64,000 nucleotides of DNA from Karstenula rhodostoma CBS 690.94. Its lineage: Eukaryota > Ascomycota > Dothideomycetes > Pleosporales > Didymosphaeriaceae. Both the position numbers and the translations under genes were made by a program. The DNA is taken from positions 1,519,937-1,583,936 of the forward strand of contig MU001494.1 in NCBI GenBank assembly GCA_010093485.1, in the 5' to 3' direction. This document shows, piece by piece, positions 6,814 through 24,315 of the stretch; position 1 is the stretch's first letter; every line of letters begins with the position of its first letter. Under the pieces are notes generated by a model. That model searched no databases, was not told the origin of the DNA, and saw nothing but the letters and a program-made list of their open reading frames with translations.

Positions 6814-7928
6814 GGTGGTTGCGGGTTAGTGCTTTTCGGTTCCGTTAATCATTCATTATGCATAGCATGGGCGGATGGTTTTACGACGGGGATACTGCGG
6901 GCGTACGTGTTTAATAGAAGCTATTTCTTCGAACGGATGGTACATAGGATTCGCGCAACAGGAAGAATTCTTCTGTTATTCGCAAGGCACATGTTTGTTA
7001 GTTGGATAGTTAGAAAGCCTTCGATAATACGAATGCAATCAAGCACTATCGTCTCCGAAAAGGTCGCAAAGGATCTCCGAGCTTCGGCCGCTTGCTACCC
7101 CTCCCCGCAGTCCCACACAAACACCAAAATGTCTTCTACGCATGTATCGTGACAGCCACAGGCATCCTAAAGACATTTTCAATGATATACGGTATTTGAC
7201 TCTGTAGACTTTGGAGTATCGAGCACTGACATGGACATAATTCTTTGCTGGGATTTATCTTACAGATTGCCCATCCCTCTGTGATTAAAAGATGCGCACC
7301 ACGGTGACTCGGCGTATCTGGTTGTATTCAGCTCGGTTTCAAACTCAAGGTCTGCAGGTCCTCATCACACCCGGAATACCAAGATCGGAGGGAAATTGGC
7401 CGAAAAGCGAACTTTCTGGTCTGCGTTGCTTCTAGGATCCATCTGCCATCTCTCCTCGGGAAGTCGAAGCGCAGCATACCACATTCGAAGAGCACAGCGC
7501 CGCACGGGCCTTGTGCGAAGACCACGGCCTGTTTGGAAGGTCCATTTAAGCACATCTTATTTGAGTCCGTCGAGTTGTGGCAAGATGAACATTATATCAA
7601 GAGATCTGGTACAAGTGCGTGGTTCAGGAAGCTTCAGGTGCAGCACGCAACCTGTATCCAGTCGCACGAAACGAGCTCGACCCGTCAAACACTTTGAGAG
7701 CTCGCTGAGGCCGTTATGGTCATTTTCCGGACGTTTGGATTGGCCTTCTGATGGAAAGTCAATACGGTGTTCCAGGAACGCACCCAACCTTTTGTTGCGC
7801 AACGGCAGCATCAATCGCCGATCCGCACCACGGTTGGAGCGCACTGCTCGCGCGCACAGACTCGCGCTTGTCAGCCGCAATTCCACTTCCAAGTCTTCCA
7901 GGCCGCCGCGCCCACTTTTCGACTTTCT
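6814..7928. other. Intergenic: 3' flank of TLC gene, upstream of U6
   Basis: Open frames occur on both strands at 7330-7900, but none shows a domain or convincing splice joins. The right end leads into the U6 promoter. Confidence 0.4.
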
Positions 7929-7939
7929 GTTCGAGTCCG
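7929..7939 (+). promoter_or_regulatory. B-box match upstream of U6
   Basis: TGTTCGAGTCC matches the tRNA-type B-box consensus GGTTCGANTCC at 10 of 11 positions. It lies about 52 bp before the predicted U6 5' end. No tRNA T-stem can be drawn around it, so it is not a tRNA end. Function is inferred only. Confidence 0.35.
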
Positions 7940-7960: not shown

Positions 7961-7968
7961 TATATGTA
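7961..7968 (+). promoter_or_regulatory. TATA box of U6 gene
   Basis: TATATGTA lies 30 to 23 bp before the predicted U6 5' end, the position of the TATA element in U6 genes transcribed by RNA polymerase III. Confidence 0.7.
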
Positions 7969-8069
7969 TTCTACTGTTTGCATCAACTTCGTTCTTCGGA
8001 ACATTTGGTCAATTTGAAACGATACAGAGAAGATTAGCATGGCCCCTGCACTAAGGATGACACGCTCAA

Positions 8070-8123
8070 GTGAGTCAGTTCGAGTCCCACTGTTGACAAA
8101 ACAAATACTAATGCAAATCGCAG
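8070..8123 (+). other. Spliceosomal intron inside U6
   Basis: This 54 bp intron has a GTGAGT donor, a TACTAAT branch site (8106-8112) and a GCAG acceptor. It is proven by comparison within the window: the U6 copy at 8407-8497 lacks exactly these bases. It carries a B-box match. The inner part can form a short hairpin with CAGT and ACTG flanking the B box. Confidence 0.9.
8077..8087 (+). promoter_or_regulatory. B box inside the U6 intron
   Basis: AGTTCGAGTCC matches GGTTCGANTCC at 10 of 11 positions. Schizosaccharomyces U6 genes also keep a B box in their intron, where it recruits TFIIIC. By analogy this is an internal promoter element of this gene. Confidence 0.7.
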
Positions 8124-8140
8124 TCAAAGAGAAGCTACCA

Positions 8141-8147
8141 TTTTTTT
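8141..8147 (+). terminator. Pol III terminator of U6
   Basis: A run of seven T directly after exon 2 sequence GAAGCTACCA. Further T runs follow at 8197-8201 and 8214-8220 and could stop read-through transcripts. Confidence 0.8.
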
Positions 8148-8161
8148 CGTGATTTGTTGTG

Positions 8162-8172
8162 AGTTCGATTCC
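8162..8172 (+). promoter_or_regulatory. B-box match downstream of U6 terminator
   Basis: AGTTCGATTCC matches the B-box consensus at 10 of 11 positions and lies 15 bp past the terminator. Saccharomyces U6 uses a downstream B box, although much farther away. In the inverted U6 copy the same place reads AGTTCGAGGCT, so the box is broken there. Confidence 0.5.
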
Positions 8173-8406
8173 GCGACGGTGCACTGGTTTGCATTCTTTT
8201 TATTAACGACATCTTTTTTTAAGCCCTGCCAGCAACACCTCCAGTACAAGATGCTTGCTTGCAGCCTAAACGTCATTTTTATCATCGCCTAGAACCACGC
8301 TGCGAAAGCGCACGACTACTCATCCCCTATCCTGGGGTAACTCGTAGCCTTTTCGCATTATAAACCTTCGCCGCCTACGGCGCTCCTGATACCATGCGCC
8401 GCAGCC

Positions 8407-8497
8407 TCGAACTCACACAAATCACGAAAAAAATGGTAGCTTCTCTTTGATTGAGCGTGTCATCCTTAGTGCAGGGGCCATGCTAATCTTCTCTGTA
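8407..8497 (-). pseudogene. Intronless, 5'-truncated U6 copy
   Basis: Read on the minus strand this begins TACAGAGAAGATTAGC, at the ACAGAGA box, and matches the U6 gene base for base through exon 1, across the exact exon junction (CTCAA-TCAAAG) and exon 2 to a run of seven T. The intron is absent and the first 32 nt of U6 are missing. The match goes on past the terminator for about 20 bases (GTGATTTGT-GTGAGTTCGA) with one deleted base, and weakly further to about 8391. It lacks the 5' stem-loop and the TATA box, so it cannot make functional U6. No clear target-site duplication was seen. Confidence 0.9.
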
Positions 8498-9995
8498 ACT
8501 CTCTTGTCTTCACTAGGGCCTGTAGCTGGATAATGTGTCCTGGTGAAACACAATGCTCCAAGTAATCAAATGCTCTCTCCAGTGCTGCGAGTCCCGTCGC
8601 GGAACGCGGAGTCACAAAGCCCATCTCCCGCATCTGACCACACCAGCTTCGACGGCGCAATCAGCGTCCGCCGCCTCCCCCGCCCAACCCGCCTCTTCAA
8701 CCTCGAAGTCACCTTCGACGACCCTGCACGATACTAGTCCCCTCGCCTCCCACCGCTAGCGCTTGATCCGTATACCTATAATAACTTTTGTAGAAGATCT
8801 CATCGAGCATGCGCGGCCCATCAGAACCCGGCCTTTTAAGCAGAAACCTCGTGTACCGATGGTCATTAGAAGGCGGCAACGGTACCGCCCTATTTCTGCA
8901 CCACGCCGGCATCTCCAACTCCCTATCGTCAGACGTAAGCCGGATTCCGACATCTACGTCGAGCCCGCCGTTGAACATTTCGATGCACTCTGGCTGTAGA
9001 TCGTGGGAGTGCTGGGGTGGCTCCTGGGCGCGGAGTTCGTGCATGTGTGGGTGATGTGCTTTGTGTGGGTTTCCCCGACTGTTCAATTGATGCGAGGAAT
9101 TCATTACAATCCTGATGTGATGACCGAAGAAAGAGGAGATGTTTGATGCTGGGGGGTCGTGTCTCGCGCTATCTACTATTATGCCGTTCAATATGATGCT
9201 GTCGAAGGCGATCACGGTCGTTGTTGGTAGGTGGTTGGGGAGTGTGCTTGGCTATCAACCGTACTACGAGGGATGGCCGACGGATTGGGAAGCGGCGAAG
9301 AGCCAGATGAGCAACTCCAGCTTCCAGATGCGGTTTGCTGGTGGTAAGTTGCATGCTCCTCCCCTTCCACCGTTGAATGTTGGGAAATTTGCTTTGAAAG
9401 GACTGACATCTCGGAGGTACTTGTGAACATCAAAATAGTATATCTCATGTATGTATCCGGTGATGTTCCCGGCCATGTCGAGGGCCGCACCCTTGGCGAT
9501 GCTGCAGTTGTAAAGTTGCAAGCTGCCTGTGGAACCTTTTGCGTATGTTGCTCCTCAAGTACATCCTGATGGTGGAACAGCAGAGCATTTAGTCATTACA
9601 TCAATCGTGGTAGCCATCCGATTATCCTCATCGGGCGGTAAATAACGCCAACGAGTGCAGACTGCAGTCCATCTGATTCAATACAATTGTGGAGCGCCTT
9701 AGCCGCTTTTTTGGTCCCCCTTTTTTCGTGCATTGGCAAAGCACAACGCGCCTTTTTTTCCCCCCCTACTTTATCAAGTCACCCTACCTCATAGTGAATC
9801 TCTACAATATATACAATTGTGGATAGCGTCATTTGTTTTTGTGCCAGAGGGTTCTACAAGGTTGAACCTGAAGAGTTGATGTCAGTCAACCGCATAGTGA
9901 TCAATTCTCCGGGCTTGTATGCATCCCAGTTCGAGGAAGTGAGTCAGCACAACGAACAACTATCCCCGACAGTATCCCCCATCCCACAGCCCATA
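8498..9995. other. Intergenic with unresolved minus-strand frames
   Basis: Minus-strand frames at 9521-9264 (with ITGYIHEIYYFDVHKYLRDV) and 9215-8709 look partly protein-like, but I could not join them into a gene or recognise a family. Homopolymer stretches (T and C runs) occur at 9710-9770. The right end is the 3' flank of the DUF7730-type gene. Confidence 0.3.
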
Positions 9996-22422: not shown

Positions 22423-24315
22423 TCAATCACTAAACCCCTCGAACGCCTCCTCCTCTTCCTCCTCCACCTTCTTCCTCACCTGCGCAATCATCTTCTGCAA
22501 CTCTTCCTCTTTCTTCCTCTCTTCCTCATTCAACCCAGCCACACGCTCATGCTCCCTCTTCTTCTCCTTCTTCTCCCTCCTCACCTCCTTGGTTGCCCTC
22601 TGTTCCTTCTTCAGCGTCCATGCATCCTTCTCCTTATCCCTCTTCTCGAACCGCTTCTTCTGCGCGCCCTCGGCTAGCTCCTCCAGCCGCTGCTTCTCGC
22701 GCACCTTGTCCTTGTACGCAAGGGCATTGAGCTCGAACTCCAGCCCAAGCGTGCGGTCGCCCTCGAACTTCTTCAGTTCAGGCATGCTCGGCAGGCGGAG
22801 CAGACCCCATGCGTGGCCCAGGTTTTCCCAGTCGAGGTCGGCGACGCGGAAGATGGAGCTGGCGGTGTGCTTGCTGTAGGCGCGGACCCAGGAGACGAAG
22901 CCACGCTGCGCTTTGTCGAAGATTGCTCTATCGGACCTGGCTACGGCTCTCATTTTTTTGCTCGCGGCATCTGCGTCGATGGATGTGATGACAATCTCCG
23001 GTGTAGTGAGGGGCGAGATGGGTGTTTGTCGTATACGGAGGAACTCGATGTAGTCTTCCTCGCGGCCTGGGTTGAGGAAGGTCAGTGCCAGCCCCCTTCG
23101 TCCCGCGCGACCAGCACGGCCACAGCGGTGGATGAAGGTTTTGGGGTCGCTGGGTGGGTCGGTTTGCAGGACAAGGTCGACGGCGGGGATGTCGAGGCCG
23201 CGGGCTGCAACGTCGGTGGTGAGGAGGATGGAGGGTACCATGCTGTCGACGAACTTGGCAAAGTTCTTTCTGCGGACCTTGTCGGGGTGCTTGCCGTGTA
23301 GTGGGATGATTGCGTGACCTTTGAGCACTTCTGGGAGCACATGTTGAAAGTAGTCGACGGAGTAGCACGTCGCCAAGTACATGATGGCCTTTTGGGGTTG
23401 CGGTTGGAGAGTTGCTAGCAGCTTCTTGATTGCTGGGATTTTGTGCGAGGGTGGCATGACTAGATAGGACATCTGGAGACTGGCTGGTGTGCGCTTGTCT
23501 TGAATTATGCCTTCTTCGCCCTCTTTTGGTGCAGCTCTGGCTTTGACTTTGACGGCGATGCGGACTGGATTGCGCAGACCAACACGGATAAGCTGGTCAA
23601 CAGCTTCGCTGACGCTAGCGCTAAACAGCCCTGTTCGCCGCTGTTTTGGCAGTCTTGAGAGTATCCTTTGCAGATCATCCTTGAAGCCCATGTCCAAGAG
23701 GCGATCCGCTTCATCCATCACTAGCGCATCGAAGGATAACTGTGGGCAGTGAACGTGCGGGGAGGATAGTAGCTCTAGCAGGCGACCAGGCGTTCCGATG
23801 AGGATATTGGGCGAATTTTTCAAGAACCAGCTCAAGTCTTGAGCAGGAGTCACTGTCCCACCCAAGAGAAGCTGGGGCACGACTTTCAGGGTGCCAGGAG
23901 GGAAGGTTGGAGGAGGAGGCGCATCCGCATCTTCCATATCAGAATCGTCGTCATCCGTCTTCATGACGGCCGCCGATGGAGCGTGAAATTTGAGCAGCGA
24001 AAGGAGAACAGTATGGATTTGCGTTGCCAGTTCTCGTGTTGGCGTGAGTATGATGGCTCCAACGTGATTTTTCTTCAGAGGCGCATCCAGTCGAAGGAGG
24101 CGCTCAACCATTGGAATCATGAAGGCCAACGTCTTTCCGGATCCAGTGACAGCTTCGACCACTACATCTTTGTTGCCCATGAACAATGGAATCGCGGCGT
24201 GCTGTACAGGTGTCGGCTTCGTGAAACCCATGGCGGAGATGGCGTCCAGTATCCATTCTGATAGTGGTGGCGTCAGGGCACTCCAGGACCGTTCAGTTTT
24301 GGTTTGAGGTGCCAT
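22423..24315 (-). CDS. SPB4: ATP-dependent RNA helicase Spb4 (60S ribosome assembly)
   Basis: A single exon of 630 aa. DEAD-box motifs occur in order: Q motif GFTKPTPVQ (30-38), AVTGSGKT (55-62), PTRELA (92-97), TPGR, DEAD (201-204), SAS (232-234), ARGLDIP and [11 protein letters not shown]. The Spb4-type C-terminal extension follows: [11 protein letters not shown], then a long Lys/Glu-rich coiled coil from about 530 to 625. Spb4 remodels pre-rRNA in nucleolar pre-60S particles. An acidic insert, [16 protein letters not shown] (about 121-136), lies between motifs Ia and Ib. Length and domain order fit the fungal Spb4 family (about 600-640 aa). Confidence 0.93.

What the first reader, a model, noticed from the sequence alone, without database searches (positions are those of the whole stretch)
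8407..8497. Inverted U6 copy that is exactly intronless and runs past the terminator
Seen: the copy lacks exactly the 54 intron bases, matches both exons without a mismatch, starts at the ACAGAGA box and continues about 20 bases past the T7 run. Inferred: the missing intron points to an RNA intermediate (reverse transcription of spliced U6), and the 5' truncation fits that. A normal U6 end cannot explain the flanking match, so the template must have been a spliced read-through transcript; T runs at 8197 and 8214 could end such a transcript. The opposite reading, that the intron was gained in the gene after duplication, would be a recent intron gain in a catalytic snRNA. Either explanation is unusual, and the perfect identity says it was recent or is kept by gene conversion.
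Basis: partly seen in the sequence, partly recalled or inferred. Interest (0 to 1): 0.9.

Follow-up and report, generated by a model that had tools for sequence, protein, structure and literature searches.

The report
Spliced U6 copy beside its gene
Next to its only U6 spliceosomal RNA gene, which carries an intron, this fungus has a short backwards copy from which the intron is cleanly missing, best explained by spliced U6 RNA having been copied back into DNA on the spot.

Summary
The genome's only full U6 gene (7991-8147, +) has a 54-nt GT-AG intron. An inverted, 5'-truncated copy (8407-8497, -) matches 71 of 71 exon/T7 bases, has none of the intron, and runs 20 bases past T7 with a one-base gap. 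Of all 54-nt deletions of gene 8023-8147 only the exact intron gives the copy. No third copy was found in 44.3 Mb.

New here: the match past the terminator ends inside an external pol III B box; further B boxes lie in the intron and upstream. The copy sits 238 bp from its parent, so a local event is likely. The intron's B box argues against a brand-new intron. U2 loci of this genome show a patchwork of two introns, one locus being 5'-truncated and lacking intron 1 only.

Best reading: a recent, non-functional processed copy templated by spliced, 3'-extended U6 RNA (0.68). Rivals: DNA inverted duplication plus cDNA-driven intron loss; duplication before intron gain. Junction repeats are at chance level. 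No fungal relatives were reachable; they would decide.

The parts
7991..8069 (+). U6 snRNA gene, exon 1 (with 5' stem-loop, ACAGAGA box, internal stem-loop)
   Evidence: Rfam RF00026 74.8 bits; only full U6 found in the genome
8070..8123 (+). 54-nt spliceosomal-type intron GTGAGT...TACTAAT...CAG, with a B-box motif
   Evidence: sequence; absent from the copy; splicing not tested with RNA
8124..8147 (+). U6 exon 2 and T7 terminator (8141-8147)
   Evidence: sequence; 24 of 24 in the copy
8163..8172 (+). external B box GTTCGATTCC downstream of the terminator; the copy's homology ends at GTTCGA inside it (8168)
   Evidence: (4 matches in window, expected 0.50; 0 of 100 shuffles reach 4)
8078..8087 (+). 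B box GTTCGAGTCC inside the intron
7929..7938 (+). B-box-like GTTCGAGTCC upstream of the gene
   Evidence: 13-nt direct repeat with the intron, 12 of 13
7961..7968 (+). TATA-like TATATGTA at -30 of the U6 start
   Evidence: sequence
8451..8497 (-). copy: part of exon 1 (gene 8023-8069), 47 of 47
8427..8450 (-). copy: exon 2 and T7, 24 of 24, joined directly to exon 1
8407..8426 (-). copy: 3' flank past T7, 20 bases against the gene's 21, one single-base gap, ending at GTTCGA
8410..8414 (.). AACTC at the left junction, repeated at 8497-8501; could be a 5-bp target duplication or microhomology but is at chance level
   Evidence: a repeat that long is found at 631 (or 559) of 5000 random junction pairs

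Best explanation
8407-8497 is a recent, 5'-truncated processed copy (retropseudogene) of the genome's single intron-bearing U6 gene. Shown: exact absence of the intron, perfect identity of the exon parts, retained 3' flank into the external B box, inverted placement 238 bp downstream, no other copy found in the genome. Inferred: a U6 transcript that was spliced but ran past its T7 terminator was copied into DNA by a reverse transcriptase or a polymerase with such activity, probably at a break or nick close to the gene. There a target 3' end ...TCGAACTC could have paired with GAGUUCGA of the transcript (8 nt). Synthesis ran up to the ACAGAGA box and was joined back. The copy lacks the 5' stem-loop and has a broken B box, so it is probably dead as U6.
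For: Exon-exon junction exact and unique among 54-nt deletions, both flanking TCAA repeats kept. Orientation, 5' truncation and 3' extension all fit synthesis starting downstream of T7. 0 substitutions in the aligned bases (95% upper bound 3.2%). The intron contains a B box, as titled for Schizosaccharomyces by Frendewey 1990 (title seen in a reference list), so it looks like a settled part of the promoter. The genome holds reverse-transcriptase sequences: 105 RVT_1 matches, 7 without a stop inside the match. In the same genome U2 locus L016 lacks intron 1, keeps intron 2, has no blastn homology to its paralogues upstream of nt 17 and, alone of 7, no TATAWA within 60 bases upstream: perhaps a second 5'-truncated, partly spliced copy.
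Against: The copy's position 238 bp from its parent is improbable for ordinary retro-insertion (about 1000/44.3e6 for within 500 bp; own arithmetic on the size) and is what DNA template switching does. No A-rich tail, no LINE fusion; the 5-bp junction repeat is at chance level (631 or 559 of 5000). Reading through a T7 terminator should be rare for pol III (established knowledge). No RNA data; no fungal relatives were reachable.
Confidence: 0.68

Rival explanations
1. Two steps: a DNA-level template switch (fold-back at a stalled fork, microhomology TCGAACTC) made a local inverted duplication of gene plus flank with the intron; later a cDNA of normal spliced U6 converted the copy and removed the intron.
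For: Explains closeness, inversion, junction microhomology and the flank past T7 without a read-through RNA. A third, weaker inverted match to the same flank at 8594-8617 (20 of 24) hints at more than one local inverted event.
Against: Needs two events in a short time (0 substitutions). cDNA would as readily have converted the real gene. No intron remnant. The 8594-8617 match is near background (score 26; elsewhere in the window, the copy apart, the best is 27 and the next 25).
Confidence: 0.14
2. The duplication is older than the intron: an intronless U6 was duplicated in inverted orientation and the intron was then gained by the working gene, for example by reverse splicing into U6 RNA.
For: U6 intron insertion occurred several times in fungi (title of Canzler 2016, seen in reference lists; its content is recalled). 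U2 loci of this genome differ in introns: an intron in 3 of 7 covariance-model matches, so gains or losses are recent on the scale of these paralogues.
Against: The intron already contains a perfect B box, which a random stretch of this length would have at a few in ten thousand (own arithmetic). The copy's identity leaves little time for gain and adaptation. A U6 promoter 'with 1st intron' is listed for Trichoderma reesei, another Pezizomycotina class (table passage of PMC9518982); its position is unknown to me.
Confidence: 0.13
3. Ordinary trans-mobilisation by a LINE that happened to land beside the gene.
For: snRNA retropseudogenes made by LINEs are well known in mammals (PMC4476161, passages), including 5'-truncated U6 copies in opossum and platypus (same passages), and LINE-made chimeric retrogenes exist in Magnaporthe (PMC2104539, passages); RVT_1 matches exist here.
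Against: No A-rich tail, no LINE piece, no 10-20-bp target duplication, only one copy found and that beside the parent. The Magnaporthe paper's RNA partner is mainly a non-U6 RNA.
Confidence: 0.03
4. Assembly or library artefact.
For: Inverted copies close by can arise from chimeric long reads (general knowledge).
Against: An artefact of that kind would not remove exactly an intron, and the copy is embedded in sequence with no other match in the genome.
Confidence: 0.02

Closest known systems
snRNA retropseudogenes of mammals (PMC4476161, passages read)
   Same: A DNA copy of a spliceosomal RNA away from its gene, truncated, presumably non-functional.
   Different: There the copies are many, most are 3'-truncated with target duplications, others have A-rich tails or LINE fusions, and the parents have no intron (recalled). 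Here one spliced copy beside its parent, 5'-truncated, with flank past the terminator and none of those marks.
Intron-bearing fungal U6 genes (S. pombe, passages; Canzler 2016, not held)
   Same: U6 gene with a GT-AG intron and a B box inside the intron (title).
   Different: Adds an external B box downstream, a B-box motif upstream, and an intronless inverted partial copy next door.
Mixed intron-bearing and intronless U3 snoRNA copies in fungi (PMC5832005, section 3.2 read)
   Same: Copies of one small RNA in one genome that differ in a spliceosomal intron (eight genomes there).
   Different: There separate U3 gene copies; here a truncated inverted fragment 238 bp from its parent.
LINE chimeric retrogenes of Magnaporthe (PMC2104539, passages)
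   Same: Fungal reverse transcription of a non-coding RNA.
   Different: Those are full-length RNA fused to LINE or SINE ends with 10-20-bp repeats; none of that here.

Membership tests
Processed pseudogene (retrocopy) of an intron-bearing gene | Introns removed exactly at splice sites | tested here: met
   Only deletion 8070-8123 gives the copy
Processed pseudogene (retrocopy) of an intron-bearing gene | Ends agree with an RNA: start and stop within the transcript | tested here: inconclusive
   5' truncation fits; the 3' end lies 20 bases beyond T7, so a read-through RNA is needed
LINE-mobilised snRNA retropseudogene | Target-site duplication | tested here: inconclusive
   AACTC at 8410-8414 and 8497-8501, but as good at 631 or 559 of 5000 random junction pairs
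LINE-mobilised snRNA retropseudogene | A-rich tail or fusion to LINE/SINE (a mark of some classes, not of all) | tested here: not met
   Neither seen in the sequence; flanks without other match in the genome
Intact U6 gene (for the copy) | 5' stem-loop, upstream promoter, working B box | tested here: not met
   Copy begins at U6 nt 33; no homology upstream (score 0); B box altered after GTTCGA
Intron-bearing fungal U6 gene (for 7991-8147) | U6 match interrupted by a GT-AG intron with branch site | tested here: met
   by sequence; splicing itself not tested with RNA data
Introner-like element (repeated new introns) | Near-identical copies of the intron elsewhere in the genome | tested here: not met
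   No other match to the U6 intron; each U2 intron matches one other U2 locus only; DNA searches at E 0.001, diverged copies not excluded

The most novel reading that the evidence does not exclude
The copy records RNA-templated DNA synthesis in cis: the spliced, read-through U6 RNA, still near its gene, served as template for sealing a break 240 bp away. Together with the U2 loci that carry either, both or neither of two introns, it would show that in this lineage spliceosomal RNAs are repeatedly written back into DNA, the step that the reverse-splicing model of snRNA intron gain and loss requires.
Probability: 0.3. Interest if true: 0.78.

Novelty: new variant of a known kind. Interest (0 to 1): 0.52.

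Why it matters
The intron of S. pombe U6 is thought to come from reverse splicing (PMC10484740, introduction passage), which needs U6 RNA to be reverse transcribed and returned to the genome (recalled model). A recent intron-free copy of spliced U6 RNA in DNA would be a physical trace of that step in a fungus with a U6 intron. The U2 loci of the same genome, with introns next to the branch-site recognition sequence in some copies and not in others, make gain and loss of snRNA introns testable within one genus.

Tried and rejected
Slippage or microhomology deletion between the TCAA repeats that flank the intron: rejected, since the copy keeps both.

A longer, diverged duplication: anchored extension beyond the 3' end of the match is at background (274 of 1000 random extensions as good); beyond the 5' end there is none (score 0, which redoes one search's 5' test, off there by one base). 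The ungapped 21-nt arm pair 8158-8178/8397-8417 at 81% contains the 11 matched bases and adds 6 of 10, and the gapped alignment also runs on for some 20 bases, so a slightly longer homology is not excluded.

Target-site duplication: AACTC looked promising. One search gave 3.6% by chance with too narrow a window (it found only 4 of the 5 bases); redone, 631 and 559 of 5000 random junction pairs do as well. Dropped as evidence; the odds were not resting on it and are unchanged.

A transposon in the flanks: 8169-9300 has no other match in the genome apart from the U6 gene.

Relatives: U6 patterns in bacterial and archaeal genome contigs gave 0, then 1 locus (L006, apparently a eukaryotic contaminant, with an intronless U6), in viral contigs 0. 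No fungal relative was available. Canzler 2016 is not held.

I briefly read the 3' flanks of U2 loci L016 and L017 as a longer shared duplication from one alignment; blastn limits the shared part to about 45 bases past the gene, so that was dropped. In one search the word search for intron 2 of L016 caught a wrong start; the 52 nt are read from the alignment printed there.

In print: no title or abstract start reporting a spliced or intronless U6 copy in a fungus, or this U2 pattern, showed in the listed rows of ten searches; lists were capped and most subscription papers are not held.

Full report
Organism and setting. The window is G000:C3:1519937-1583936 of a 44.3-Mb, 29-contig genome. The SPB4 helicase encoded at 22423-24315 is 95% identical to that of Paraphaeosphaeria minitans, 91% to Didymosphaeria variabile and 87% to Kalmusia sp., so the host is a pleosporalean fungus of or near Didymosphaeriaceae (the family placement is recalled). 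ARAGORN, with the bacterial code, found no tRNA in the window.

The U6 gene. Rfam finds U6 at 7991-8094 (+) at 74.8 bits. Read by eye and script it has exon 1 7991-8069, a 54-nt intron 8070-8123 with GTGAGT, TACTAAT and CGCAG, and exon 2 with a T7 run ending at 8147. A TATA-like box lies at -30. GTTCGANTCC, the B-box core of pol III promoters (motif recalled), occurs four times in the window (expected 0.50; 0 of 100 shuffles reach four), and three of the four lie here: upstream at 7929, inside the intron at 8078 and just past the terminator at 8163. A B box inside the U6 intron is the title finding of Frendewey 1990 for Schizosaccharomyces (title seen in a reference list); a B box downstream of the terminator is how S. 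cerevisiae SNR6 is built (recalled).

The copy. On the minus strand 8407-8497 holds 47 of 47 bases of exon 1 from the base before ACAGAGA, joined without any intron base to 24 of 24 bases of exon 2 and T7, followed by 20 bases equal to the gene's next 21 except for one missing T. The exact match stops inside the external B box: the gene goes on TTCCGCG, the copy GGCTGCG. Upstream of TACAGAG there is no homology (score 0). Of all 54-nt deletions of gene 8023-8147 only that of the intron yields the copy, which keeps both TCAA repeats that border the intron. No third U6 was found in the genome: covariance search 2 hits (47 of 2445 candidates scored), DNA searches with gene, copy and flank only these places, a 29-mer with up to 3 mismatches one hit on each strand.

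Age. With 0 substitutions in the 91-base copy the 95% upper bound on divergence is 3.2%. The copy lacks the U6 5' stem-loop and has an altered B box, so selection is unlikely to preserve it; it is then probably younger than the split from P. minitans, whose SPB4 differs at 5% of residues (inference). At 91 bp it is likely too short for repeat-induced point mutation (general knowledge); the stop-ridden RVT_1 matches, 98 of 105, suggest that such mutation works in this genome.

Mechanism. Exact intron loss speaks for splicing, hence for RNA. The retained flank needs an RNA that ran past T7 by at least some 20 bases; T5 at 8197 and T7 at 8214 could end it. The place speaks for a local event: the only copy found in 44.3 Mb is 238 bp from its parent, about 2e-5 for a random landing within 500 bp (own arithmetic). 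The left junction is compatible with priming by pairing: target ...TCGAACTC against GAGUUCGA of the transcript, with the one-base gap a few bases further on, where synthesis would have just begun. The other junction repeats AACTC, but that is at chance level (631 or 559 of 5000). I therefore favour RNA-templated synthesis at a nearby break, mark the splicing step as well supported, and the enzyme, the priming and the break as inferred. A DNA fold-back duplication explains place, orientation, flank and microhomology equally well, and fails only on the intron, which then needs a second event.

Intron gain instead of loss. The intron's perfect B box makes it look like a settled part of the promoter; gain after a duplication with no substitutions since would leave little time for that. 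A U6 intron is also implied for Trichoderma reesei ('U6 snRNA promoter with 1st intron', table passage of PMC9518982). [quoted passage not shown] I could not check introns in other Pleosporales, so this rival keeps 0.13.

Genome context: other small RNAs (in these covariance searches only 41 to 48 of several hundred to 2744 first-look candidates were scored, so counts are lower bounds). U3: one match, 221 nt over all 219 model positions, no intron seen, although U3 introns occur in the vast majority of Pezizomycotina examined in PMC5832005 (section 3.2). U4: two matches, U5: one, lengths near the model, no intron seen. U1: two matches below cut-off, not examined. U2: seven matches, six over cut-off. 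Intron 1 (55 and 62 nt), right after GTGTAGTA, which holds the branch-site recognition sequence (recalled), is in L017 and L018; intron 2 (52 nt, 49 of 52 identical), after CACTAAAA, is in L016 and L018; L014, L015, L019 and L020 have neither. L016 has no blastn homology to its paralogues upstream of nt 17 and is the only one of the seven without TATAWA within 60 bases upstream: it looks like a 5'-truncated copy of a half-spliced U2, the same signature as the U6 copy, although a promoter replaced by other means is possible. An eighth place, L027, matches only the 3' half of U2 by DNA search. None of the introns belongs to a repeated family at this sensitivity. A U2 intron is known from Rhodotorula hasegawae (title in a reference list). 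So presence or absence of introns among snRNA copies is a wider feature of this genome, which fits repeated RNA-to-DNA traffic, but gains cannot be told from losses here.

Consequences for RNA. A transcript through both arms folds into a long hairpin (-237.1 kcal/mol against a mean of -125.6 for 100 shuffles), simply because of the inverted repeat. Whether any such RNA or small RNAs from it exist is unknown.

Verdict. Observation confirmed; RNA-intermediate reading most likely but not proven; a new variant of known things (snRNA retropseudogene, fungal U6 intron).

Noticed in passing
L014-L020 and L027 (genome contigs C14, C5, C19, C11, C15, C23, C17): U2 snRNA loci carry a patchwork of two spliceosomal-type introns: both in L018, one each in L017 (intron 1) and L016 (intron 2), none in L014, L015, L019, L020. 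L016 also lacks the shared 5' end and TATA.
   Followed up: partly
L010:1501-1721: The only U3 snoRNA match found in the genome is intronless, though most Pezizomycotina are reported to have a U3 intron.
   Followed up: partly
8594-8617 (-): A third, weaker inverted match to the U6 downstream flank (gene 8157-8179), 20 of 24, 11 of them in a row, about 95 bp beyond the copy; near background for the window.
   Followed up: partly
7926-7938 and 8075-8087: The upstream B-box motif and the intron B box share 12 of 13 bases; three B-box motifs around one U6 gene is unusual as far as I know.
   Followed up: no
genome G000: 105 reverse-transcriptase (RVT_1) matches, 98 with TAA/TAG stops inside, as expected of repeat-induced point mutation; 7 have no stop inside the match.
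   Followed up: no
L006:2150-2605: A bacterial MAG contig (JAIYDP010000129.1) carries what looks like an intact eukaryotic intronless U6, so it seems contaminated or misbinned.
   Followed up: no
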